DNA of 64,000 nucleotides, taken from assembly GCA_947044365.1 (NCBI GenBank), contig OX345636.1:61259537-61323536 (forward strand), read 5' to 3'. Shown here piece after piece: positions 1,311 to 49,995 of the stretch; position 1 is the stretch's first letter, and each line of letters opens with the position of its first letter. The translations under genes and the position numbers were made by a program. The stretch comes from Petrosia ficiformis (lineage: Eukaryota; Porifera; Demospongiae; Haplosclerida; Petrosiidae). The notes below the pieces were generated by a model. It did no database searches. It saw nothing but the letters and a program-made list of their open reading frames with translations, and was not told the DNA's origin.

Positions 1311-4300
1311 GATGAAGAAACAGCTCTGGATATAGCAAAAAGTGAAGGATATGAAGGATGTGTGCATATACTGGAAGAGGCTATGGTGTGTAAAATAATG
1401 TAATTTTCATTACTTGTCATTACATGAATATAATGTATAATGTATATTTACATCACTACACTATCAGGGTTTCATTTAGAGGGGGTTGTGGTGGGAGGGG
1501 TCATTTGCCCCCCCCCCCCTTGCTAGAGTTTTGCACATCTTTAACTTTTTTTTTTTCCAATATGCACACTATTATAGCCCTGTATGTCACCCCTCTAAAG
1601 TTATTTAAATTCACACTTCAACAAATTTTCTAAATGAAAACCTGACAATCAGAGTTTTTGATAAGGTTTGAAGCATGGGCCAAATTGGCTCAAAAATGTT
1701 TAGTGTGTGCGCATTGGAAAAACATCTTGAGCCAATTAATAAAGACTTAATGCTGTTAGTGACAATATAATCATAATTAACTTCGCCACTGGCTTGAAGA
1801 GAGAACTGTGAAGTGCCCAAAAAAAGAAGCTCCATGGGCCAGTGGTGCACCATATGTGCTTATCGAAAACACTGCTGTCTATACTATATACCCATATGGG
1901 TATACATTTTCGAGGTGTTTAATTTTCACATTTTCAGCTTTTGTAGGGGTTTCATTTTCGCGGTTGGGATAATTATTATTAACCTGTTTGCAATTATTCC
2001 TGTTTGTGGGCATGGTGCAAAAGAAATTTATTGACATAATAATTCTGATTCCAAATATAGGATGAAATCATGGAATAAAAAAGAAACTGACATGCTCACA
2101 ACATGAAGATGTTTATTTAGTTTAAAGCAGCCCAAAAATCGAAACTACTTGCCTAACAAAAGTGATAAAGAGACGCTAATTGTGGGTGTTACCACTAGAC
2201 TACTTAATACTCGCCTTGCTGCTTTCCTGTAGCCAGCGAAGCATGTTTGTTGTATATACAGCTTTCTTAGATGGTCTTCTGTCTAATTAAGTGGGTTAAA
2301 AGTCACTGGTATTTAAAATGCAAAAATTATGCAGGCGAGTATAGAGGTGGGTGTAGCCCTGGAACTATTAAATTTTCAAGCGCTCACCTTACTCTCTTCC
2401 TGCTGATAATAAAGCATTAGGCAATCACCTGTGAAGGCACAATTTCTGACAAAGGAACATTGGGATCCAAAACATCATCAACAGGATGAAGGTATCTGAG
2501 CAAAGCCATGATCGTACATGTTTCACACTTGCGTACACGTGTAAAAAAAAGTGGGTGTGGTGAAAAAAATTAAAATTTCCAGAGAATTTAATTTTGTGGG
2601 AGCCAAAGCATAGTGAAAACAGCGAAATTTAGTCCCCATCGAAAATTTATACCCATACGGACATTTCTGATTACCTATACATAATATAGTTCTACCACAC
2701 AATCTATTGCTCTATGTGTACAATATTTATACATTCCTAATCATATAAACCTACTCATACTTGTATAGTGATTATGTTTATTATTAGTACATTAAAAAGT
2801 CTGATTCTGTTACTAGTATTGAGATTTGGTAATTATTTCCTTTTAGAAGAATCAAAAAGTTGATAAGCATTTGGATAAACCTGGTAAGTAAATATGATAT
2901 TGTTTTATTGGTTATATACACATGTACATGTACATGTAGATTGTAATTGTTGTAATGATTGTAATGATTGTAATGATTGTAATGATTATAATGATTGTAA
3001 TGGATATCAGGTCTGGTACTTGGCCGGGTTGTGTCAAGCACTTTCTGGGCTTAAGCACAGTTTATGAAGTGCTTTATTTGAAGTGCTTCAAAGCCCTTTG
3101 TCAATTTAAGCACAAATGTTAATTTTCTGTGCTTGTAGTTAGTTACATGTACATTCTGATATTTACCACTTTTCTTTGCAACTACATGTACTGTAAGAGG
3201 GTATACAACTACCCTTATCAGCACATGTGTGATAGCAGGTGTATAATCAAGACAATGACAGCTGTAGTAGCACTTTCAAGTGCTTTAAAGTAATTAAGTA
3301 CTCTAACAAAGGGCTTGTGCTTAGGGTTAAGCACATGCAGAAATGTTAATACTTGTATTTGTGCTTGTACTTGTACTTGTGCTTGTGCTTGTGCTTGTGT
3401 TTGTGTTTGTGCTTGTGTACTTATGCTTGTACTTGTACTTGTGCTTGTGCTTGTACTTGTGCTTGTACTTGTGCTTGTATTTGTGCTTGTGTACTTGTGC
3501 ATGTGCTTGTGCTTGTGCTTGTACTTGTACTTGTTTTTGTACTTGTACTTGTGCATGTGCTTGTGCTTGTGCTTGTACTTGTACTTGTACTTGTGCTTGT
3601 ACTTGTACTTGTACTTGTACTTATACATGTATTTATACTTGTACTTGTGCTTGTATTTGTGCTTGTACTTGTGCATGTGCTTGTGTTTGTGCTTGTACTT
3701 GTACTTGTGCTTGTACTTATACTTGTACTTGTGCTTGTACTTGTATTAATACTTGTACTTGTGCTTGTATTTGTGCTTGTGCTTGTAATTGTACTTGTAA
3801 TTGTGCTTGTGCTTGTGCTTGTACTTGTACTTGTGCTTGTATTTGTGCTTGTACTTGTGCATGTACTTATACTTGTACTTGTGCTTGTATTTGTGCTTGT
3901 ACTTATACTTGTACTTGTGGTTGTACTTGGGCTTGTACTTGTGCTTGTACTTGTGCTTATATTTGTGCTTGTGCTTGTACTTGTGCATGTGCTTGTGCTT
4001 GTGCTTGTACTTGTACTTGTACTTGTACTTGTACTTGTACTTGTGCTTGTATTTGTACTTGTGCATGTGCTTGTGCTTGTGCTTGTGCTTGTACTTGTAC
4101 TAATACTTGTACTTGTGCTTGTGCTTGTGCTTGTACTTGTACTAATACTTGTACTAATACTTGTATTTGTATTTGTACTTGTACTTGTACTTGTGCTTGT
4201 ATTTGTGCTTGTACTTGTACTAATACTTGTACTTGTGCTTGTGTTTGTGCTTGTGCTTGTACTTATACTTGTACTTGTGCTTGTGTTTGTGCTTGTGCTT

Positions 4301-7300
4301 GTACTTACATGTATACTTGTACTTGTGCATGTTTTTGTGTTTGTGCTTGTATTTGTACTTGTACTTGTGCTTGTATTTGTGCTTGTGCTTGTACTTGTAC
4401 TAATACTTGTACTTGTGCTTGTGCTTGTGCTTGTGCTTGTAGTTGTACTTATACTTGTACTTGTGCTTGTATTTGTGCTTGTACTTGTACTTGTATTTGT
4501 GCTTGTGCTTGTGCTTGTGCTTGTGCTTGTGCTTGTGCTTGTGCTTGTGCTTGTACTTGTACTTGTACTTGTATTTGTGCTTGTGCTTGTGCTTGTGCTT
4601 GTGCTTGTGCTTGTGCTTGTGCTTGTACTTGTACTTGTACTTGTATTTGTGCTTGTGCTTGTGCTTGTGCTTGTGCTTGTGCTTGTGCTTGTGCTTGTGC
4701 TTGTGCTTGTACTTGTACTTGTACTTATACTTGTACTTGTGCTTGTGTTTCTGCTTGTGCTTGTACTTACATGTATACTTGTACTTGTGCATGTTTTTGT
4801 GTTTGTGCTTGTATTTGTACTTGTACTTGTGCTTGTATTTGTGCTTGTACTTGTACTAATACTTGTACTTGTGCTTGTGCTTGTACTTATACCTGTATTT
4901 GTGCATGTTTTTGTGTTTGTGCTTGTATTTGTACTGGTACTTGTGCTTGTACTTGTGCATGTGCTTGTACTTGTACTAATACTTGTACTTGTGCTTGTGC
5001 TTGTATTTGTACTTGTGCATGTGCTTGTGCTTGTGCTTGTGCTTGTACTTGTACTAATACTTGTACTTGTGCTTGTGCTTGTACTTATACCTGTACTTGT
5101 GCATGTTTTTGTGTTTGTGCTTGTATTTGTACTGGTACTTGTGCTTGTACTTGTGCTTGTGCTTGTACTTGTACTAATACTTGTACTTGTACTTGTGCTT
5201 GTATTTGTACTTGTGCATGTGCTTGTGCTTGTGCTTGTGCTTGTACTTGTACTAATACTTGTACTTGTGCTTGTATTTGTGCTTGTACTTGTACTAATAC
5301 TTGTACTTGTGCTTGTGTTTGTGCTTGTGCTTGTACTTATACTTGTACTTGTGCTTGTGTTTGTGCTTGTGCTTGTACTTGTACTAATACTTGTACTTGT
5401 GCTTGTGCTTGTACTTATACCTGTACTTGTGCATGTTTTTGTGTTTGTGCTTGTATTTGTACTGGTACTTGTGCTTGTACTTGTGCTTGTGCTTGTACTT
5501 GTACTAATACTTGTACTTGTGCTTGTGCTTGTATTTGTACTTGTGCATGTGCTTGTGCTTGTGCTTGTGCTTGTACTTGTACTAATACTTGTACTTGTGC
5601 TTGTATTTGTGCTTGTACTTGTACTAATACTTGTACTTGTGCTTGTGTTTGTGCTTGTGCTTGTACTTATACTTGTACTTGTGCTTGTGTTTGTGCTTGT
5701 GCTTGTACTTACATGTATACTTGTACTTGTGCATGTTTTTGTGTTTGTGCTTGTATTTGTACTTGTACTTGTGCTTGTATTTGTGCTTGTGCTTGTACTT
5801 GTACTAATACTTGTACTTGTGCTTGTGCTTGTGCTTGTGCTTGTAGTTGTACTTATACTTGTACTTGTGCTTGTATTTGTGCTTGTACTTGTACTTGTAT
5901 TTGTGCTTGTGCTTGTGCTTGTGCTTGTGCTTGTGCTTGTGCTTGTGCTTGTACTTGTACTTGTACTTGTACTTGTATTTGTGCTTGTGCTTGTGCTTGT
6001 GCTTGTGCTTGTGCTTGTGCTTGTGCTTGTGCTTGTGCTTGTACTTGTACTTGTACTTGTACTTGTACTTGTGCTTGTGCTTGTATTTGTGCTTGTACTT
6101 GTGCTTGTGCTTGTACTTGTGCTTGTACTTGTATTTGTGCTTGTGCTTGTATTTATGCTTGTGCTTGTACTTGTATTTGAGCTTGTACTTGTATTTGTGC
6201 TGTGCTTGTGCTTGACGTAATTTAAAAGTGCTTGCACTTGTACTTAAGCACTTTTCTAAAGGGCTTCACACAACCCTGGTCTTAGAGTGGGCAACCTTTG
6301 GATTTACCCAGGATCCCCAACATACCACAGAAAGAATGGGCCTGGAATGGATCGTTTTGGAATTTACAAATGACTAATCACTCCTTGTCTAGATAATAAA
6401 TTGATTTAACAACAGTATTCAATTGATTTTAAAGCATAAAAATCTGATTTCTGTAGTATAACATCATACTCACATAATAACAAGTTAATTAAGGACATAA
6501 TATAATAAGTGACCACACCATCATGAATAAATTATTATCTAGGATCATTACTACTATTGTAGTCTTGTGTAGTCAAGCACTGCAACTCTACGAGTGACTC
6601 CCAGAGTCTTGTCACATGACTCTTGACAATTCTAATTAAAGCTTTAAAGCTGATTTTTCAAAATACAAATAATCAACATAACATTTGCATGCGTGGAACC
6701 GTCTCCCGTCACCTTCAATACAACCCACATTACTTGAGTAGGTGTTTAAAATGGCAAAGTAGCAAAAACGAAAATTATATAGGCATGTCTTTAAACACGC
6801 GTCTTATACTAAATATCATTATCTATAGCTCAAGAGTTAGTTGACCAATAGCTAAGATATTATACTATATAGATATTGAAATTCCTGAGAGAAGCACAGT
6901 TTGTCTGGAAGCTCTATTTGAACTAATTATGTTTTCTTTAATTTTATTGTTTATCTATACAGTATAATAACTTATCTATTTGTCCACTAACTCTTGGATT
7001 ATAGATAATCATATTTATAAGCATTTAAAGTCATGTCTATGAATTATTGCTGCTTCTCCATTTTAAACACCTACTCAAGTTAAGTGCGGTTGCACCTAAG
7101 AACTACTGATATATCTCTGATCAAACACTATCCATACAGTGTATTAGACCATCTCTTGATCATAGAGAGGAGGGGCTTGCTACACAAGACTAGCGTTCAA
7201 AATATGCAAATATTTCTGTCCCAGACCAATAAATAATCCCTTAAAGTTTTAAGTTTTATAGTTTGTATTAATACATGTATATTAGTTATATTAGGTGTTT

Positions 7301-13300: not shown

Positions 13301-16300
13301 GAGTGGCTCAGAAATTCATTAAAATTATACAATGCCATGATAAATATGAGCAATAAAAAATCACTGAATTTAGTGGATGCAATTAATATTAGGCTTCAGG
13401 TATTTAGTGAAAATTCACATCACCATAGTTATGTATACAATGTCAGCTTTCCAACAACATTAAATCCACTTGTGTCAACATCATTGAAAAGCTACTTGTG
13501 TCAACATCATTGAAAAGCCACTTGTATCAACATCATTGAAAAGCCACTTGTATCAACATCATTTAAAAGCCACTTGTATCAACATCATTACTATAACACT
13601 TACATCATGTAGTGCTACAGTTCATCTAATGATATTCATAAACATGATCTTCCACTACTATGTCCTGATTCATTTCAGTATACTAACACAATGTTTTAAT
13701 GCTGTGTATAGTAGTAGAATGTAGTAGTGGTTGATATACATTTAGTAGGTGTGCTTATTTTAATATTCAAATACTAAACGATCATGATTATATTACTAAT
13801 AATTTTGTACATGAAGCCAATATCTGATTCATTGATATCTCATGTTTTAAGTTGGAATTCAATAATGAAACATTCTTCTCTCTCAATCCCTAGATACCCC
13901 ATTTTCACCAGAAATTCAGGCTTCTCTGATCAGCGCTCTAAAAGAGGGGTCTGGTGATGCTAATGTGTGTCTTTTATTAATGCATGGGGCACCAGGTGTA
14001 GGTAAATCTAGCGTTTGTCATGTACTACAAGGACTTCCACCTTTACCAAAACCCCAGCAGCATAGCACAGGCGTTTTCGAGAATCCAGTTCGATTAATCA
14101 AAACGGGCCGCTTTTCTCTAACATCTGAAGCAGTACTAGAACATGTCGACGAGACGAAATTAATGGGAATGATTGCTTCCCATATTGGGGAAAAGGAAGA
14201 GGAGGAAAAACACAAATCAACAACACCATCTCAGCCATCCACTAAAAGTGAAAATCGAAACAAACGTGCAGAAACACAACCTTCAACTGGTATTCGGCAA
14301 CCTGTTTCAAGTGAAACCTCCCCAGCAAAAAAACATCCAACCTCGCAGCCAATGTCAGATGTTCTTAGAGGTATTGCCAAGCTGAAGCGAAAAGAGAAAT
14401 CCTCCTCTGATCTTTTCAAAATTGCCTGGTTTCACATAATGGATTCTGGTGGTCAGCCTCAGTTCACTGATGTACTTCCTCTTATGTTCCCAAAAGTGTC
14501 GCTTCATCTTGTAGTGATTCGTTTAGATGAGAAGCTAGATGATAAGCCATTGGTTCGTTACCTCGTTGCTGGTGAAAACAAATATAAGCTCCCAGATAAT
14601 CTTGCACTGTCCAATCTACAAATGATACAGAGGACATGTGAACTAGCTGAGGCCGCTAGAATCTCTAGTCAGAAGAAGGGTCATCCATGGGTAATGGTCA
14701 TCGCAACACACTTAGATTGCGATTGTTCTAAAGAATCTTTACAAGAAAAAAACCGTCGCCTTCGAGAGCTGCTTAGGAGGTACAAGTATGTCCTTATAAC
14801 CAAAAGTAAGGATGAAGTGATTTTTGCCATGAACGCAATGGCACCCAAAGGACAGGAACGTAATGAGTATACACGCTTACTCCAAGACCACGTTCTGAAT
14901 GCTCCAAAGGTTCACGAAGATATTCCAGTTCCTGTACGATGGATGGTATTCCACTTGGAGCTTAGTCGATGCTCTGACGAGGGTGTGGTGGAGAAATCAG
15001 TTTGCTTGGAGGTAGGAGCTCGAATTCAGATGCAAAACGATGATGCAATGAATGCTGTCAAATACTTCGATTCAGTTGCCTTACACATGTGCTTGCCTGA
15101 TAAGCTTGGGAATCTGATCTTAACAAGTTTTGACCCATTTGTTTCTCGACTCTCTCTAGTACTAGCTGCCTCTTTCACCATGCCAAGAGCTGGTCCAATC
15201 AGTGAAGATCGTGAAAAGCTAAGGACCACCGGTATTCTAACAAAAAAGTTTGTAGAAGAATTGTTTCGTGGGAAGTTCCACCCTCATCCATTCACTGTAG
15301 ATAAGTTTTTCGCTCTCCTCAAATACCTACGAATTGCCGTCCAGATTGAAAAAGATACATATTTTATACCCTGTGTCTTACCATTGGATGACCCTAACCC
15401 TGTGAAATTTGTCAAAGAGTGTTCTCCTGCATTGCTAACTTGGGGCAAAAATGTTCTTCCTCAAGGGTTTTTTCCTGCTTTAATCGTGCAGTTGCTTCGA
15501 AGGAAATCTGCTCCACATTTTCGTCCTTCCCGTGGTGCAAAGCAACTTCGACGTGCAGTTTACCTCAATTCGCAAGATGGTGCTCTTCTTGTCGTTGATC
15601 AAACCTCGTGGTTTGAGTTGTATTTTTCTGGTGAAATCTTGAAATTTCCTCTCATGTTAGAAGCAGTGGAAGAATCTTCACGTCGTCTCGCAGATAGAAT
15701 GAAGATTCATGGCTATGGAGAATTAATCCGTGGTGTCCGGTGTCCAGGTGTTAGTTGTGATGCTCCTTTTATTCATCCTGGTATAATACTTCCACAATGT
15801 AATATGGCAGAGTGTACTGAGATGGAAGCTTACCATTTCGAATTGTCACCAGAACAGAAGCATTGGATCAACTCAAATTCAGGTGAGCATGTGAAAAATA
15901 ATTAATAACAATAATCATAAATTGCTAGAAAACCTATTTGGCTTTCCAAAAGCATGAAAGTAATTCCTATTGCATTAACTAGCAAATATTCTCATCGACA
16001 AGATTCATGTTGACATGCTACTTTTTTTGTATATAGTTATATCCCATATGAATTGTATTCAGTGAATTGTTCATAGCACACATCTTATCTGTAATTCAGA
16101 GGTGCTAAAAAATAGAATTCGAAAAATCTTGCAGATTGATTTTTTTGTCACCCACATTCACATAATTATTATGCTTTTAATTTAATTATTACCTGTATAC
16201 TATAGGAACATTATCCACACAAGAAGTCCATTTGAAAGAGCTAAACTCAGATGAAGTGTTTCTTCAAGGTTTGCATTATATTATAGTAATTATAATCAAT

Positions 16301-20804: not shown

Positions 20805-22254
20805 TTTTTTTTCTCTGTATACACTTGTTTATAATTACAATTATAGCGTATACTGCTGTCAACAGTGATTGCACTGTGTTGATGCTTTGATAATTAAGAG
20901 AATTGTAGACTAGCTATCAATCTATCTATATACAACTTACATGAGATATTTACATAATTGTTAAAATGACCACATTAAGTTTAGTCACCGGATGATAAAC
21001 TGGTCACATTATTACTACAACTCAAAAAAATCCATTCAAAATGCTTTGTACTTTTAAATTTAACCTTTTTTTCCCTTGAATTGATTGGGTTAAAGAAGGC
21101 CCAACCTTTGAACTAACTAGAAACACATTCATTGATGCACTTCCTGAATTATCAATTTTCCAAACATAATGTACTAAATACCAACTAAATTATCACTGAA
21201 ATTGGTTCTGCACGGGCTACTGGCCTTTCCAATTCCCTATAATCAATTGTAGACGGTGTTCTGACCCTCCATTTCAACTGTCCTGGAGTTCCAACCTTTG
21301 GATGCATCTAGAATTGCTAATTACTATATTATTATCCACACAAACAAAATTATAAATTAAATTATTAAAAAAACAATAATTACATTAATATATTTCTTCA
21401 GATTCTTTTTGTTTATTGTGTGGATGTGTTTGTGACAATAATTGTAAAATATAAGGAGTTAGTTCATTTACCTGTAAAAAAAAAAGATAGGAAAAGAAAT
21501 GTATCACATTATAATATTATGTCTACGGAATTATAATACTAATTCCATTTTATATAATATGACAAGGTTCATAATGGTGATGATCGTTATTTATATTGTA
21601 TCACATATACTGTACAATATTGGCTTCTGGGTATATTGATAAACAGTTTAGTATACTTGGTTTCACACAAACAGACAGACAGACAGAACACCAGATTACA
21701 GTAACCCTCCATTCCACTTACGTGAGCAAGAGTTAACAAGATATATAATATTTATAAAGAGGAAAGATTATCACTATGATTACTTTGTTGCATCAGTAAT
21801 AAGTCCACCATTGCTGAACCAAAGAAGTTTCTCATGTTATAAACCCAATATAATCCATACTAACAATAGTTAATAGTTATCTGTCTCCCATTCTTTATAG
21901 ATAATGTATGTTAGCTATTAGTTTCTATAAGCTACTGTTTATTGTACTAGCTCAAATTTGTGTTGTCTCATGATATGCCCCACCCATAAATTAATGATTT
22001 CAACCATTGCTTGGCCTAGCTTTGTGCCATACTTACTCCATATTGTCACTTTATAAGTATATAAAATTTATACAAAATGATAACACTCACTGATAATCTT
22101 CTTTCTGGTACATATACATCATCTACCGTGAGAGGAAGAAATTATAATAGATGTTCATAATGTAACATGATGTATATACCTTCTTGAGTCTTCATAGTTT
22201 TCAAGACACTAACAAAATCCAATACACTATAATATAAAAGACATTCTTTAAAGC
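20805..22254. other. Intergenic, no gene seen
   Basis: AT-rich DNA between the MITE and the transposon. The block ACACCAGATTA...GTAACCCTC at 21690-21710 recurs near 51735. I see no supported exon. Confidence 0.5.
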
Positions 22255-22300
22255 TATGGAGGGTGATCAGTGCAAAAATTCGTTAGTTCATTTGAGTGAT
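22255..22300 (+). repeat. Left terminal inverted repeat of the integrase/HECT transposon
   Basis: 46 bp, one mismatch (position 14, C against T) to the reverse complement of 27329-27374. Followed by about seven 20-bp subterminal repeats, probably transposase binding sites spaced near two helical turns (inference). Confidence 0.9.
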
Positions 22301-22637
22301 GATTATTTCATTTGAGTGATAATTATTTCATTTGAGTGTTAATATTCCATTTGAGTGATGATTATTTCATTTGTGTGATTTATATTCCATTTGAGTGATG
22401 ATTATTCTATTTCAATGATTAATTCAAATGAGTTAAAAATATTTTATCTGAGTGATAGTGTAATTAGGTCAGTTATTCAAACAAATAGCCAACGTGGTAT
22501 ATATAGCTGATACATCTTATCTTCCACTTACTTTTCATCATGTCCCATATACAAATAGAATTTGCTATTTATATTAGAAAGAATTTGTTGAGATACTCAA
22601 TGATTTTTTAAGTATTGACAAAATTATTATAATTATT

Positions 22638-24228
22638 TCAAAGATGTGCATATTGTCTCAAAAACTGCAATGACTGAGTATAATAATCGATGCCATTATG
22701 GTTAGAGTGAGCTAGTGGGTCAATTGAGTCAAGCATAACTTGAAAGACATCTGCTGAAAGTGGACATTCAGTGACTGGGACTTCCATAACAGATGATTCA
22801 TCCATGTCAGTAGGTGCTGGACCTTCCCAGTCAATACCATACTCTTCTATAGTAGTCTGAGTAAATAGGAGGATAGAGTCAACAAGGTCATAATTATAAA
22901 TAATTTTGCACAGTACATTGTATTAATTATCACCTCAGAAAAAAATTCTGTTGATATCAGACTGTTTATACGACACAACTGTTGAAGACCTGCTGTCCAA
23001 AGTTGATTTGGTGTGGTGTTATGAGTGGTACTAAGAGGATGATTTATCCATGCATTTTTCCATTGTTCTAGGAGGCGATTTATGCGTGGGATATAGATAT
23101 AATGAAGGGCAAACACACACAACTCATCATCAGGATCTAATAAACTTGTCTCTTCCAAATGAAGAAACAACTCTTTATAAAACTTTATAACTCCAGTAAA
23201 GACATCTCTCCATAATCGTTCAATCCTTTGATTATGGACACTACGTCCAACAATCATGGAACCTCTCCCAGGACCTCGTAATGGATGCTCCAACATAAAC
23301 ATTGCAACATCAACATTTTCTCCACCTTTGTCACTCCTAACTCGAGAAGGCAGACCATAGTGTTCAACAGCAGTTTGAAATAATTGTAGCACTGTATTGG
23401 CACAATTATTATTGCTACAATGAAGATAAACTGGTATTCTGGAGTATCCATCAATACCACCATGGATGACAAGTCTCCATCTACACCAAACAGGAGATTA
23501 TGATTTTTACTTTAAACAAGTGAATATATATAGAAATACCTGATGAGCTTGTGATTCCCATCTATGTGCCAAAGAGCCAGAGGTGACAAAACATTGTATG
23601 TACGCCTTTGAACAGCTTGTGACCTTCGCAACAGAACTCCAACAGGGTCAACTCTATTAAGTGATTCTTTGACTCTCAACTGAGTCACTCTAATTCCCCT
23701 AGCTTTTAAGTACCCCAACATCATACGATATCCACATGAAGGATATTCTTGCTTGATTTCTCTTACAATTCCATCCAATTCAGCATCATTAATACATGTA
23801 TAAAGGTCTCTTACAGACAATCCAAATTCATGCATTCTGTATCGAACGGTTCTTACGCTAACACCTAGAAGATGTGCTATCTTTGTACATGTAAATCCAA
23901 TATGTAGTAAATGCTCCAGCTGTTCTTCACTTATTTCATATGAAGGCCTTCCTCTTCTTCCAGAAATACTTACTGCAATTCTTTGAGTAAATACTTCAGT
24001 ACCTTGTGAACTTTCTTGTATGGTATTTAGAATTGCCAAACTTTGGGCCAGTGATGTAAGGGAGTCCAAGGGATATGAGGGAATCATAAGTAGGCAGTGT
24101 AAGAGTCTCGAGACATGGAAAATCAGTCTGTCAAGACATTTAGGGTCTCTATTCCTTTCATAATCGGCAAAACCCCTTCTCACAGATTCAGACATTAATT
24201 CAATGTATTGAGATAATTGCTCTTCCAT
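22638..24228 (-). CDS. IS3-like DDE integrase/transposase
   Basis: Three exons, 24228-23540, 23480-22934 and 22856-22638, joined by short introns (59 and 77 bp) with consensus sites, give 484 residues in one frame. An N-terminal helical region is followed by a helix-turn-helix (about 96-137, [20 protein letters not shown]) and an IS3-type HTH_21-like block ([19 protein letters not shown], 161-179). The rve/RNase H core then carries the triad D223 (WHIDGNHKL), D280 (RSDKGGEN) and E317 (HNQRIERLW), spacing D-56-D-36-E. The C-terminal exon is acidic. It would cut and join the element's ends in the nucleus. The start is the first ATG after the divergent promoter gap, 58 bp from the HECT start. 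All key residues are present, so it may be active. Confidence 0.85.
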
Positions 24229-24286
24229 GGTGAATAGAGTAAATTAACATTAATTAACCTTATTAATTTTTAATTAAATAAACAGC
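24229..24286. promoter_or_regulatory. Divergent promoter gap of the transposon
   Basis: Only 58 bp, nearly all A/T with TTAATTAA-like words, separate the two start codons. Core promoter elements for both genes must lie here or inside the first exons. Bidirectional control is inference from geometry. Confidence 0.5.
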
Positions 24287-27003
24287 ATGGCTGACGATCT
24301 AGATAGGGCCAAGAGCTTGCTGTTGGGTGCTGTAGAAACCGCTCTTCGAATAGCTGCCACGAGAGGCGGTAATAGTCATCAGACATCTACAAATACGGAG
24401 CGTATGCTTAATGCTGGTTCTTCGTCAAGGCAACCATCTACCATTGCACTCACTTCATATGAAGAACATAGAAAACTTTTTGGTCACGCATCTCAATCCA
24501 AGGAGAGAATTGGAGCAAAACGAAAACAGTCAAAGTCAGTGGTTGGAGACACAAAGAGAAAGAAGAAAACACAGCAAACTTGGAAGAAGGACGTACTGTG
24601 TTTGAGACTGTGTGATCAAGAAACGAATCCGAGTACTGAAGAAAAAATGCATTTGGCAAAACTAGGCCTTGGCTTAAAACAGTTGGTGTTTGATAGTGAT
24701 GGGGGTCCTCAGCACATCCATGATGTCTGTATTGATCACTTTCCTGGTCTTTTGAAATGTGGGGGGTACACACTTCTTCGTCTTTCAGACCACTCCAAAA
24801 CTAATTTAATTGAAATTGAGAGTCCTGATTCAGGAATGACTGTTCCATATTTGAAAGATATCTTACGCCAAGCTAAATTATTCATAAGACCATTGCAATG
24901 TGATATACCCGAGGAGACTCTGAAGGTTGGTTGTCAAGTTAAATTATTAATCATAATTATGTAGTGCATGTTATAATTAGAGTACAAATCTAGGCTTATT
25001 ATGTGTATCACAATTCAAACAGGACATATCAAAAGATGTCTTCAGTACTGAACCAGAGGAATTCTGTCAAAAGTGTTCCAAATTGTTCTCATTGCCACAA
25101 CTTAGAAAGCATGTGACCAAATGTGGTAAGGAGACGGAAGATTCAGATGAGTATGAGTTACCGGAAGTGACTGTATCAACAGATACATTTGAGTTACCTG
25201 AAGTGACTGTATCAAATGATACGTTTGAATTACCAGAAGTGACTATAACAACTGATACATCTGAAGACAAAGGGTTAGTTTTTACATGATCGTTACATTT
25301 GATAATGATTTCAATAATTTTATGTAATATAGGAATACGTCTACCCCATCATTTTCAAATCAGGGTGCTAGTGCAAAACCTTTACCTTCAGTTGATATGT
25401 CATCAAAACTGGGCACCACAACAACTTATAAGTATGTAATTGAGATGATACTTTGTGGTAAATTGACTTGAATTGTTTCATCAGTGATTTTATAGAACTG
25501 TTTGACAGCGATTCAGACTTTGATGATGTAATGTTGCAAGATGCTATTCAACAGACCAGCACATGTAACAGTGAAACGTAAGTGATCATTACTATACTTG
25601 CATATACATTTCATGTATTAAATGTTGTGCTTCTTTTTGTAGAATTGAAAAAGAGTCATCAGTGGAAAATGTTTTACTAAAACATCGACAAAGTGTCCTT
25701 TCCAACAGTTCTGAACCTTTACGTATCACCGTCAGACGGCATAATATATGGAAGGACTCACTTGTGGCATTGGGACGAAAGTTTGATGAAAGAAAACCAA
25801 TTCAAATTACCTTTCTTGGTGAGAGTGGAATTGATGATGGTGGTCCTCGTCGAGAATTTTTCATGTTACTGTTAAAAAGCATTGCAAACAACAGTGCAGT
25901 GTTGAGTGGGCCTTTAAATAGACGCATATTACAGCACAACACAGCTGCTTTACAAGATAATGTCTACTACATCATAGGGAAAATCATAGCACTGTCATTT
26001 GTTCATGGAGGTCCACCACCAACATTTTTTGCTCCATGTGTAATTGACTACATTATTGGTGGTATAGAAAATGTTGAACCTTCCATAGATGACATACCTG
26101 ATTTAGAAATACAGGATGCTATCAGAAAGGTATGACAAAAGAAAGTTTGTTTCATATCTGTTTCATTATACTCTTTCTTCTTTATAGCTTAATGCAGCAC
26201 AGAGTGATGTTGATTTTCGTGAAATTATGGGAAGTGAGGAATACAGTTTTCGTTTTGATTGTGGAGTTACCCAACCTCATATTAACTTGTCACTTTCTGA
26301 TCGTGAAAAGGTTGTGTCTGCCCTGTGTCTGCATTACACAGTTTTTTCCTGCCTGGCTGAACTTGAGCAGCTCTGTCGTGGCTTATCAACATTTCAGTTT
26401 TCTATGCTTGTTGAGTGTCATACAAATCTCTTCCGTCCTCTCTTCATCAATAAAGTCGAATGCATTTCTGCTTCATTTCTCCAAGATATGTGGAATGCTG
26501 AACTTTCTGCTCCTGGAAGCAACAAAAGAATTATTGAAGAACAACTGACCATGTGTTGGATAAACTTTTTGATTTCCTGTGAAGGTGATTAATTGTATGA
26601 ATGGACTGTTACACTAAGTCTATAGCCATATGTCTCATATGACTATATACATATCCATCTGTAATTGTATTAATTACTATAAAAAATAGATTTGTTTTCT
26701 GAATTACTATTTTATATTTTTAATGTTATTATATATTATACTACAGAAACTGGTGGGACTACAGAGATGCCATCATTAACTGATATCTTGGTTTTTCTGA
26801 CAGGATCAGATGTGATTCCACCACTAGGATTTAAGGATATAGTTCCTAAAATTATATTTTCTGACGACTGTTGTTTACCAAGTGTTTCTACATGTGCAAT
26901 GACATTGAAGATTCCACTTGACTTTCCAAATGAACAAGAAGAGTTTAACTCAAAAATGGGATACTGCATTTTGAATTCACAAGGATATTTTGGTCAACCC
27001 TAG
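24287..27003 (+). CDS. Zinc-finger and HECT-domain E3 ubiquitin ligase (transposon-borne)
   Basis: Seven exons in phase (24287-24925, 25023-25273, 25333-25431, 25485-25577, 25643-26129, 26188-26584, 26747-27003) give 740 residues. Residues 1-213 hold a Lys/Arg-rich, NLS-like stretch (KRKKKTQQTWKK) and a folded-looking domain. C228/C231/H243/C247 form a C2H2-type finger. Three 12-residue ELPEVTVSTDTF repeats and an acidic DFIELFDSDSD segment (SUMO-interaction-like) follow. The HECT domain runs from about 350 to the end: the N-lobe has FLGESGIDDGGPRREFF, the C-lobe has LPSVSTC with catalytic Cys705, 35 residues from the end. HECT ligases take ubiquitin from E2 on this Cys and pass it to substrates. 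The nearest recalled relatives are G2E3-like HECT proteins. The substrate is unknown. Confidence 0.83.
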
Positions 27004-27328
27004 CAATTACTTAACCAATTCAATTTGCTAACAGTTCATGCTGAGAACTATTGTGATGATAGTCATATTGGGTTGTTGCTAACAACTTATCAACTTATTA
27101 TCAACTTGTTTATTATTCTGAAACTATGTATATTGCAACAATAGTCATATTGGGTTGTTGCTAACAGTTTATCAACTTATTATCAACTGAATTGAGGACT
27201 ATAATATATATAAAATTCTGAAATAATCATCACTCAAATGGAATATTAATCATACAAATGAAATAATCATCACTCAAATGAAATGGTCATCATTCAAATG
27301 GAAAATTAATCATTCAAATGGAAAATTA

Positions 27329-27374
27329 ATCACTCAAATGAACTAACGAATTTTTGCACTAATCACCCTCCATA
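27329..27374 (-). repeat. Right terminal inverted repeat of the integrase/HECT transposon
   Basis: Reverse complement of the left end with one mismatch, followed outward by the TAAAGC target duplication. Preceded by a 20-bp CACTCAAATGAA/CATTCAAATGGA array in mirror orientation to the left one. Confidence 0.9.
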
Positions 27375-27486
27375 TAAAGCAGTACATTATGATAATTATT
27401 ATGAACAAAATAATTATGTGATAATTACATGTACATACACATTGTGTTTCTTCATGTTCAAATGAAGACAATAAGTGAGTTACAAG

Positions 27487-27618
27487 TAATAGTTATAACA
27501 TACCTCCAAGTGCCACATGGAATAAATTGTCACTGTGATGACATCAGGCCTGAGGGTGTGGTGTCATTGCAGAGACAATATATTCCATGTGTGCATGAGG
27601 AGGTATGTTATAACTGTT
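27487..27618. repeat. Fold-back element
   Basis: AGTTATAACATACCTCC at 27490-27506 is the reverse complement of 27599-27615. A second inner pair (CACATGGAATA / TATTCCATGTG) extends the arms. It lies between the transposon and the HPS6-like stop codon; no gene. Confidence 0.6.
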
Positions 27619-47776: not shown

Positions 47777-47817
47777 TTATTATATTATTATAATATATAT
47801 AATTATATATACGTCTA

Positions 47818-49995
47818 AGTGCAACGACACCCTCTGGACTTGATGCATTTAGTTGGAGACGATTATGTACTGCCTTCCGGCAAAAGTCCAATGACTTGTG
47901 TGAGGCCATAGCTGCAATAGCTCGAAGAATTTGTACTACATTCCTTGATCCATCTACTTTGCAGGCCTACACTTCGTGTCGTCTGATTCCCCTTAATAAG
48001 TGCCCTGGAGTTCGCCCTATAGGGATAGGAGAAGTAATGCGAAGGATTATTGGAAAGGCAGTCATGAAAGTGGTGAAAGTTGATCTGCAGGATGCAGTTG
48101 GTGCAATCCAGCTATGCGCTGGTCAAGATGCTGGGTGTGAGGCAGCCGTCCATGCGGTAGAACAGATTCTGTTAGATGAAGATACTGAGGCGTTGATACT
48201 GGTAGATGCATCAAATGCATTCAACTGCTTGAACAGACAGGTGACATTACTTAATTGTAGAACAGTCTGTCCTGCTCTGTCATACATCCTTGTTAACACT
48301 TATCGCAATAACTCGCAGCTGTTTGTTGACGGACATTGCATACTATCTAAAGAAGGGACTACACAAGGGGACCCGTTAGCCATGGCTATGTACGCCATTG
48401 GGACCCAGCCATTGATCCGCAGATTGGATGGTATTGCCAAGCAAATATGGTATGCGGATGATTCTGCTGCTGGATCGAGCCTAGAGAGACTCAGGAGGTG
48501 GTGGGATCTTCTGGCCGAGGTTGGTCCAATGTATGGATACTTTCCGAACAGCTCCAAGACACATGTTCTAGCAAAGCCACATCATGTTGAGGCTGCAAAA
48601 GAGGTATTTAAAGGTACTGGAATAGTAATTTCGACTGATCATGAAGGGGAGCGCTACCTGGGTGGAGCAGTAGGTACCTCTTCGTTTGTGCGTCAGTATG
48701 TGGAAAGAAGAGTGGTAAATTGGACAAATGAAGTGGAACGGCTCAGCAAAATTGCCGAAACCCAACCACATGCAGCATATGCTGCTTTTACTCATGGACT
48801 ATCTTCAAAATGGAATTACCTTTTAAGGGTAATTGATTGGGAAGAAGACCAACTGGATGGTGTATTGGAGCCTTTGGAAAGGGCAATCCACTCACACTTT
48901 ATTCCAGCACTCACAGGACAACCTGCACCAGGTGAATATATGCGAGAAATGTTTGCATTACCAGCACGACTTGGTGGTTTGGGCCTGATGAATCCTGCTG
49001 CCTCAAAAAAAGAACAGCGAGCAGCCTCACAGCAAATCAGTGCCCCACTTGTTGACAGAATCATCAATCAAGACCATCAGTTGGGTAATTGCCATTCAGT
49101 TCAGCAGAGCATTAAGAAGAGAACCCAGTATGCTAAATACACAAAGCAGAAGGAAGATGCGAAAGAACTCCAACGTAATCTATCGATCCCTCTCCAACGT
49201 TCTATCGAACTCTCCCAGGAAAAGGGAGCCTCCACCTGGCTTACAGCACTCCCCATCATTGAGCATGGCTTTGCTTTGCCAAAAGCTGCTTTCAGAGACA
49301 GCCTCTCCCTCAGATATGGTTGGCCTCTACAGAATTTGCCATCTCACTGTAGCTGTGGATATCCATTCAATGTTGAACATGCTCTGACATGCAAAACAGG
49401 AGGCTTCCCAGCAGTGAGACATAATGAAGTGAGAGATATCACTGCCATGCTGCTGACTGAAGTTTGTCATGGAGTGACAACTGAACCCCACCTGCAACCG
49501 CTTTCAGGCGAGTCCCTGTCTTACCGCTCTGCCATCACTGAAGACGGTGCTCGACTTGATGTTGCAATGTATGGATTCTGGGGGGGCAGATTTGAAAAGG
49601 CATTTGTTGATGTAAGGGTATTCAACCCTAGCGCCCAATCAAATCGTCACGGTTCCCTTTCGTCTATATATCGCAAGCATGAGCAAGAAAAGAGAAGGCA
49701 ATACGATCAGCGAGTGCGGGAGATTGAACATGCAACTTTCACACCACTGGTGTTGTCCACAACAGGTGGAATGGGACGTGCTGCAACAACATTTTACAAA
49801 AGACTTGCATCAATGATAGCTGAAAAAAAAGAAGCCTCCTATGCTGTGACTTTAAATTGGATAAGATGCCGACTAAGTTTTGCACTCTTGAGAGCCTCTA
49901 TTATGTCTATTAGGGGAGCTAGATCATCCCGACACCATCCAGCCAATAAATACCCGATTGACCTTCAGCTTGCCGAAGGTCATTTAATTAACTGA
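47818..49995 (+). CDS. Non-LTR retrotransposon reverse transcriptase with restriction-like endonuclease (5'-truncated)
   Basis: An open frame of about 720 codons without an upstream ATG at the homology start (near SATTPSGLDAFSWRRLC). RT motifs run in order: RPIGIGEVMRRI, LILVDASNAFNCLNR, EGTTQGDPLAMAMYA, the catalytic WYADDSA (YADD at 48451-48462) and YLGGAVG. The C-terminus has a CCHC knuckle (CSCGYPFNVEHALTC) followed by RHNEVRD and an endonuclease-like RLDVAMYGF...FVDVRVFNP. These mark the R2/NeSL/CRE-type restriction-like-endonuclease lineages; the exact clade is uncertain. The product would nick DNA and prime cDNA synthesis there. The frame is uninterrupted, suggesting a recent insertion truncated at the 5' end, as is usual for target-primed reverse transcription. 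Confidence 0.8.
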   Translation, partial: SATTPSGLDAFSWRRLCTAFRQKSNDLCEAIAAIARRICTTFLDPSTLQAYTSCRLIPLNKCPGVRPIGIGEVMRRIIGKAVMKVVKVDLQDAVGAIQLCAGQDAGCEAAVHAVEQILLDEDTEALILVDASNAFNCLNRQVTLLNCRTVCPALSYILVNTYRNNSQLFVDGHCILSKEGTTQGDPLAMAMYAIGTQPLIRRLDGIAKQIWYADDSAAGSSLERLRRWWDLLAEVGPMYGYFPNSSKTHVLAKPHHVEAAKEVFKGTGIVISTDHEGERYLGGAVGTSSFVRQYVERRVVNWTNEVERLSKIAETQPHAAYAAFTHGLSSKWNYLLRVIDWEEDQLDGVLEPLERAIHSHFIPALTGQPAPGEYMREMFALPARLGGLGLMNPAASKKEQRAASQQISAPLVDRIINQDHQLGNCHSVQQSIKKRTQYAKYTKQKEDAKELQRNLSIPLQRSIELSQEKGASTWLTALPIIEHGFALPKAAFRDSLSLRYGWPLQNLPSHCSCGYPFNVEHALTCKTGGFPAVRHNEVRDITAMLLTEVCHGVTTEPHLQPLSGESLSYRSAITEDGARLDVAMYGFWGGRFEKAFVDVRVFNPSAQSNRHGSLSSIYRKHEQEKRRQYDQRVREIEHATFTPLVLSTTGGMGRAATTFYKRLASMIAEKKEASYAVTLNWIRCRLSFALLRASIMSIRGARSSRHHPANKYPIDLQLAEGHLIN

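What the first reader, a model, noticed from the sequence alone, without database searches (positions are those of the whole stretch)
22255..27374. Intact DNA transposon that carries its own HECT E3 ubiquitin ligase next to an IS3-like integrase
Seen: 46-bp inverted ends with one mismatch, perfect 6-bp TAAAGC target duplication, a spliced integrase with D223/D280/E317, and a divergent spliced HECT gene with catalytic Cys705, all inside the ends. Known: HECT C-lobe L-P-x-x-x-T-C and rve DDE signatures. Inferred: the ligase is an element gene, perhaps ubiquitinating host restriction factors, the integrase itself, or chromatin at the target. A ubiquitin ligase encoded by a cut-and-paste transposon would be an unusual accessory function.
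Basis: partly seen in the sequence, partly recalled or inferred. Interest (0 to 1): 0.9.

Follow-up and report, generated by a model that had tools for sequence, protein, structure and literature searches.

The report
Transposon family carrying a ubiquitin ligase
A recently active cut-and-paste transposon in this animal genome carries, besides its own transposase, an intact-looking ubiquitin ligase gene, and the same two-gene pairing recurs across many distantly related copies, so the ligase looks like a standing part of this kind of transposon and not a stray host gene.

Summary
Window 22255-27374 is a 5,120-bp DNA transposon: 46-bp inverted ends with one mismatch, TAAAGC target duplication, a three-exon DDE transposase (D223, D280, E317) and a divergent seven-exon HECT gene of 740 aa (Cys705). 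Four copies are full length and nearly identical; four more are internal deletions that cut only the HECT gene. All eight have their own 6-bp duplication, and four of four fetched paralogous empty sites carry one TAAAGC. Ends (TATGG..CCATA), 6-bp duplication and missing HHCC domain fit the known IS3EU/GingerRoot superfamily. HECT is no chance passenger: 42 of 55 strong transposase loci have a HECT hit within 6 kb (shifted controls average 1.2, at most 6), five families with different ends enclose both genes, and the divergence of the two proteins is correlated. Two fish relatives are annotated 'G2/M phase-specific E3 ubiquitin-protein ligase-like'. Ten literature searches showed me no description of HECT in IS3EU; Repbase was not searchable. 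Function is inferred: a trans-acting E3 acting on host silencing factors or on the transposase complex. New variant of a known kind.

The parts
22249..22254 (.). target-site duplication TAAAGC, left copy
   Evidence: 4 of 4 fetched empty paralogues have TAAAGC once
22255..22300 (+). left terminal inverted repeat, 46 bp, TATGGAGGGTGATCAGTGC...
22283..22456 (+). left subterminal array of about 20-bp repeats; repeat number varies between element copies; possibly transposase-binding sites (inference)
22638..24228 (-). DDE transposase gene (PF24764), 484 aa, exons 24228-23540, 23480-22934, 22856-22638; D223 (23562-23560), D280 (23332-23330), E317 (23221-23219); weak helix-turn-helix matches below Pfam cut-offs before the core
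   Evidence: integrase fold predicted for the homologue P0010 with a 32-row alignment
24229..24286 (.). 58-bp gap between the two divergent start codons (19% G+C), presumably a shared promoter region (inference)
24287..27003 (+). HECT E3 ubiquitin ligase gene, 740 aa, exons 24287-24925, 25023-25273, 25333-25431, 25485-25577, 25643-26129, 26188-26584, 26747-27003
24578..24907 (+). N-terminal conserved domain of the HECT protein (residues 98-207); the matching part of homologue P0122 is predicted as a beta-grasp (ubiquitin-like) fold
25065..25124 (+). C2HC zinc-finger-like motif C-x2-C-x11-H-x3-C (residues 228-247), spacing like UBZ-type fingers (recalled)
   Evidence: same spacing in F2a, H-x5-C in P0122; only a sub-threshold Pfam match there (XAF1_C, E=0.06)
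25154..25264 (+). in-frame 36-bp repeats in the linker, about 3 units here, one unit more in copy L025
25656..27000 (+). HECT domain (residues 366-740) with catalytic-type Cys705 codon at 26893-26895 and C-terminal ..YFGQP
27219..27346 (-). right subterminal array of about 20-bp repeats
27329..27374 (-). right terminal inverted repeat, 46 bp, 1 mismatch to the left one
27375..27380 (.). target-site duplication TAAAGC, right copy

Best explanation
The feature is an intact-looking, recently mobile DNA transposon of the IS3EU/GingerRoot superfamily whose usual gene set in this genome is two genes: a DDE transposase and a HECT E3 ubiquitin ligase. The transposase would bind the ends and subterminal repeats and paste the element into a 6-bp staggered target (the 6-bp duplication is shown; catalysis is inferred from D-D-E and fold). 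The HECT protein (ubiquitin-like fold, C2HC finger, linker, HECT domain with the catalytic-type Cys) is most likely a working E3 supplied in trans by full-length copies, as copies that lost it keep an intact transposase and sit in their own target sites. My preferred target is a host factor: the ligase marks a silencing or DNA-repair protein, which raises expression or transposition of the element (about 0.45). Next comes the transposase or the transposase-DNA complex itself, controlling dose or disassembly (about 0.3). Shown: structure, mobility, long-standing linkage and correlated divergence of the two genes, conservation of the catalytic-type Cys. Inferred: ligase activity, target, benefit to the element. 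The confidence below is for what it is; the mechanism carries the lower odds just given.
For: Four full-length copies, 5,101-5,137 bp, differ by 3 single-base columns, one 1-bp gap and repeat-unit changes, each with its own 6-bp TSD. 4 of 4 fetched empty sites have one TAAAGC, and 3 of 3 fetched for L029 read across one ACTTTC. Five TIR families enclose both genes (F1 window; F2 L032/L033; F3 L052/L056 with extensions; F4 L053; F5 L055). 42 of 55 strong PF24764 loci have a HECT hit within 6 kb; 400 shifted controls: mean 1.245, max 6; 34 of 41 with an open transposase core. HECT and transposase identity matrices correlate over 6 families, r=0.75, reached by 3 of 720 orders, the true one included. 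Cys in a TC motif in 6 of 6 families; a four-family profile aligns it to the Rsp5 motif LPKSHTC, E=1.5e-18. Transposase fold: retroviral integrases, IstA, TnsB.
Against: No activity data. 4 of 8 units of the window family lack most of the HECT gene yet keep the transposase coding bases, so HECT is not needed in cis; two of these four still count as paired through remnants. 13 of 55 strong transposase loci have no HECT hit within 6 kb; two of the 13 are window-family deletion copies. HECT dN/dS between close copies is 0.59-0.95 in five pairs, 4.0 on 15 changes in one, undefined in one, so selection on recent copies is not shown. 0 of 3 transposase-bearing contigs of another sponge show HECT, with at most about 2.4 kb of flank on a side: too short to decide. 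The HECT part of the predicted homologue model is low confidence.
Confidence: 0.85

Rival explanations
1. The ligase acts on the transposase or the strand-transfer complex (turnover, dose control, or extraction of the complex after insertion), not on host defence.
For: The two genes are linked across families and their divergence is correlated, as expected of partners; in the window family they are divergent with a 58-bp gap.
Against: Correlated divergence also follows from simple co-inheritance. Units without a full HECT gene sit in their own target sites. No interaction data.
Confidence: 0.3
2. The HECT gene is a captured host gene carried as a neutral passenger.
For: Close copies show no clear purifying selection; half of the window family's units lost most of it; F2b is decayed.
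Against: Both genes recur in five TIR families and near 42 of 55 strong transposase loci; HECT cores of six families are still 22-47% identical with the TC motif kept in 6 of 6. A neutral passenger would hardly survive such divergence.
Confidence: 0.07
3. The HECT protein has lost or never had ligase activity and serves as a ubiquitin-binding or DNA-binding cofactor of the transposase.
For: PDB matches cover mainly the N-lobe start and the C-lobe; the most diverged type, L049, has an altered C-lobe.
Against: Pfam HECT over its cut-off, catalytic-type Cys and the ..FGQ tail are kept (the tail is altered in L049).
Confidence: 0.1
4. Two unrelated features: an IS3EU element that inserted next to a host HECT gene.
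For: HECT hits are numerous in the genome: 87 merged loci, of which 46 have no strong transposase locus within 6 kb.
Against: Both genes lie inside the inverted ends and TSD, and the empty paralogous sites have no insert.
Confidence: 0.01

Closest known systems
[quoted passage not shown]
   Same: TA..TA termini, 6-bp TSD, no HHCC motif, first catalytic D 100-300 residues from the N-terminus; ends TATGG..CCATA match the TAYGG..CCRTA of fungal TET+ IS3EU (PMC12730594, passages read)
   Different: a HECT E3 gene as regular second gene; the held main texts of these two papers have no occurrence of HECT or ubiquitin
Fungal TET+ IS3EU elements with an alpha-kinase gene (PMC12730594, passages read)
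   Same: a second enzyme gene in the orientation opposite to the transposase inside an IS3EU element
   Different: alpha-kinase and TET/JBP dioxygenase there; HECT ligase here
HECT E3 ligases of the Rsp5/NEDD4, AREL1 and HUWE1 kind
   Same: HECT domain by sequence profile, catalytic-type Cys, C-terminal tail
   Different: transposon-borne; own N-terminal beta-grasp-like domain and C2HC finger; no other Pfam domain over its cut-off
Fish 'G2/M phase-specific E3 ubiquitin-protein ligase-like' proteins (P0123 Sparus aurata, P0124 Cebidichthys violaceus)
   Same: related by profile, E=9.2e-65 and 2.5e-26
   Different: named as host proteins by the source; whether they lie in transposons was not testable here
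Kolobok lineages with accessory nucleases or helicases (PMC9587614, passages read)
   Same: DDE transposon lineages marked by an accessory enzyme gene
   Different: other superfamily, other enzymes

Membership tests
IS3EU/GingerRoot | 6-bp target-site duplication | tested here: met
   8 of 8 window-family units; 8 of 8 units of other kinds checked; F3 two units
IS3EU/GingerRoot | TA..TA termini, TAYGG..CCRTA in fungal members | tested here: met
   TATGG..CCATA in every unit counted
IS3EU/GingerRoot | transposase without N-terminal HHCC, first D 100-300 residues in | tested here: met
   no C-x2-C in residues 1-240, first D at 223
IS3EU/GingerRoot | groups with IS3EU/GingerRoot transposases in a tree | not testable with these tools
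   Repbase sequences not held
Ginger1 | HHCC motif before the catalytic core (PMC10045372 passage) | tested here: not met
HECT E3 ligase | HECT domain above Pfam cut-off | tested here: met
   53.0 bits against 23.9
HECT E3 ligase | catalytic Cys in the C-lobe motif | tested here: met
   Cys705 aligned to the Cys of Rsp5 LPKSHTC (that this Cys is catalytic is recalled); TC in 6 of 6 families
HECT E3 ligase | HECT fold in a predicted model | tested here: inconclusive
   few rows cover HECT; pLDDT mostly below 60 there; the best Foldseek rows are HECT ligases but none reaches E 0.001
HECT E3 ligase | ubiquitin transfer through a Cys thioester | not testable with these tools
   needs an assay
UBZ-type ubiquitin-binding finger | C2HC finger of the UBZ spacing that binds ubiquitin | tested here: inconclusive
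   spacing present, no Pfam match above cut-off, binding not tested; the UBZ consensus is recalled

The most novel reading that the evidence does not exclude
Animal IS3EU elements are in general two-gene transposons, transposase plus HECT E3 ligase; this would be a DNA-transposon lineage with its own E3 ligase as a standing component, and part of the 'G2/M phase-specific E3 ubiquitin-protein ligase-like' genes of fish and other animals would be transposon genes or their domesticated descendants.
Probability: 0.5. Interest if true: 0.8.

Novelty: new variant of a known kind. Interest (0 to 1): 0.66.

Why it matters
The transposon accessory genes that I know of or met in the passages read are nucleases, helicases, demethylating enzymes, kinases or proteases (partly recalled). 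A ubiquitin ligase kept next to the transposase through deep divergence would mean that a selfish element brings its own arm of the host's protein-marking system. Four nearly identical full-length copies make it testable in a cell transposition assay with and without the catalytic Cys, and its substrates could point to the host factors that restrain this superfamily. It also warns that some genes annotated as host E3 ligases may be transposon genes.

Tried and rejected
Single-host-gene capture and side-by-side coincidence were rejected by the bounded units, empty sites and shift controls.

dN/dS between close copies as proof of selection failed: too few changes, or decayed copies. Between families only two values could be computed, 0.14 (transposase, window against F2a) and 0.23 (HECT, F4 against F3b), at synonymous distances of 2.5-3.2, near saturation; two others were saturated. 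The transposase value for F3b against L067 includes a misaligned N-terminal stretch and is not used.

Literature: 10 searches. One search asked for IS3EU with HECT: 0 papers. Searches also gave 0. In the listings of the others (one search listed 30 of 41) I saw no title or abstract start about HECT in a DNA transposon; five papers were opened, by passages only. The GingerRoot paper was not held. Repbase and Dfam were not searchable.

In one search I used a pattern not taken from the element; its loci L001-L004 are not used. The pattern search had 4 hits with its reversed control against 32. One search stopped on an output error and was rerun. In one search a side check of the L029 empty sites printed False because its offset was wrong; the printed letters agree with the join. 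In one search I had left out PF00632 hits far from transposases, so the control was rerun with all HECT hits and the further loci; the result was the same. The strong transposase set is the first 55 of the 139 rows; the 84 weaker rows, many of them fragments, were dropped. The earlier count with weaker rows is.
Full report
OBSERVATION. The window element spans 22255-27374. Left and right 46-bp ends differ at one base. TAAAGC flanks both sides. The minus-strand gene splices into a 484-aa transposase with D223, D280, E317, Pfam PF24764 at E=3.8e-82. The plus-strand gene splices into a 740-aa HECT protein with GT-AG introns, Pfam HECT at 53.0 bits against a cut-off of 23.9 and Cys705 in LPSVSTC. 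Splicing is inferred from sequence.

MOBILITY. The left 18 bases occur with at most 2 mismatches 32 times in the 191-Mb genome, against 4 for the reversed control. I fetched 17 stretches around these sites. With the window this gives 8 bounded units of the window family, each with its own identical 6-bp duplication. Four are full length, 5,101-5,137 bp. In their alignment three columns are base changes and one is a 1-bp gap; the rest are repeat-unit changes, in the terminal repeats and in one 36-bp unit of the HECT linker. The other four are deletions with different breakpoints; they lose 1185, 2057, 1364 and 1796 of 2223 HECT coding bases and none of the transposase coding bases, so each still has HECT remnants. 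Of the 17 fetched stretches, four (L036, L038, L039, L040) gave no bounded unit.

EMPTY SITES. The joined flanks of the window insertion match four places over their full length at 98-99% and four more over 319 of 321 bases at 93-97%. The four best were fetched; each has TAAAGC once. For L029 four places match across the junction; three were fetched and read across one ACTTTC. L027 sits inside the HECT gene of a related element; the uninterrupted relative F3a has TCAAAG once at that place.

HECT IS AN ELEMENT GENE. Units with different end sequences enclose both genes: F2 (L032 5,512 bp, L033 5,445 bp), F3 (5,237 and 5,225 bp), F4 (L053 4,969 bp), F5 (L055 3,361 bp, decayed), besides the window family. 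Genome-wide, protein and family searches give 55 strong transposase loci and 87 HECT loci of any kind; 42 of 55 transposase loci have a HECT locus within 6 kb, against a mean of 1.245 and a maximum of 6 in 400 shifts. Arrangement: 31 convergent, 9 divergent, 2 same strand; one of the same-strand cases shares its HECT with a neighbouring locus. Of 41 loci with an open transposase core, 34 are paired, two of them only through HECT remnants of window-family deletion copies; two of the seven unpaired are the other deletion copies. An earlier count without searches gave 35 of 67 HECT loci near any transposase hit, shift mean 1.34, maximum 5. The tool states that hit lists are lower bounds.

CO-INHERITANCE AND CONSTRAINT. 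Across six families HECT cores are 22-47% and transposase cores 42-65% identical; the matrices correlate with r=0.75, reached in 3 of 720 orders including the true one (for one family the transposase comes from L043, taken as a close relative of the L054 element). The TC of the C-lobe motif is present in 6 of 6, D-D spacing is 57 and D-E 34-37 in 6 of 6. dN/dS between close copies is not informative. The window family is divergent while F2, its nearest in both matrices, is convergent, so gene order changed between them.

DISTRIBUTION. The transposase search gave 3305 proteins at E 0.001 or better of 7999 scored; among the 120 listed are named proteins of sponges, corals, fishes, hemichordates, a priapulid and a mussel. 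The HECT profile search gave 17 of 7856: P0122, two fish proteins named G2/M phase-specific E3 ubiquitin-protein ligase-like, and 14 proteins of 260-312 aa that match over 22-24% of the query at 56-64% identity; the five of these that I read (P0125, P0127, P0129, P0133, P0138) resemble the first exon. No genome context of these was available. Three contigs of another sponge, present in a bacterial MAG, have the transposase but no HECT match, with at most about 2.4 kb of flank on a side; this neither supports nor excludes pairing there.

CLASSIFICATION. TA..TA ends, 6-bp duplications, no HHCC and the position of the first D fit IS3EU/GingerRoot as described in PMC10045372, and TATGG..CCATA fits the TAYGG..CCRTA of PMC12730594 (passages read). 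Fungal TET+ IS3EU elements carry an alpha-kinase gene opposite to the transposase; the elements here carry HECT, mostly in the opposite orientation. I found no paper that reports HECT in IS3EU (0 papers; other searches in Tried and rejected).

MECHANISM. Shown: a two-gene mobile unit with precise 6-bp duplications and long-standing linkage. Inferred: the ligase is active and works in trans, since deletion copies keep only the transposase; a host silencing or repair factor is my first guess for its target, the transposase complex the second.

Noticed in passing
window 47803-49995: 730-aa open frame with a weak reverse transcriptase match (PF00078, 23.3 bits, below its cut-off), likely a non-LTR retroelement.
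   Followed up: partly
window 13869-15905: 678-aa open frame with a P-loop-like GAPGVGKSS motif (by eye) and no Pfam match at E 0.001.
   Followed up: partly
window 3350-6214: 2.9-kb array of a 6-base unit (TACTTG, about 477 copies), open in several frames.
   Followed up: no
window 22095-22254 and 27375-27540: The insertion lies in a sequence matched end to end at 8 other places on contig C1 between 56.4 and 61.8 Mb.
   Followed up: partly
L027: A window-family copy is nested inside the HECT gene of an F3-like element.
   Followed up: yes
L031: A unit whose outer ends are both of the left type, with right-type ends inside, as after aberrant repair.
   Followed up: partly
L034, L035, L037, L041: Short units of 661-2,239 bp with related ends and 6-bp duplications; L034, L035 and L037 look like non-autonomous derivatives, L041 holds a transposase fragment.
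   Followed up: no
L068, L069, L070: A public bacterial MAG (Cycloclasticus symbiont of a poecilosclerid sponge) holds contigs with this eukaryotic transposase, one beside a retrotransposon-like frame (by eye), so host contamination is likely.
   Followed up: partly
G000 C1:45759445-45763395, C1:15610244-15614068, C1:26131238-26134019, C1:28933599-28936509: Further divergent transposase/HECT pairs outside the window family.
   Followed up: no
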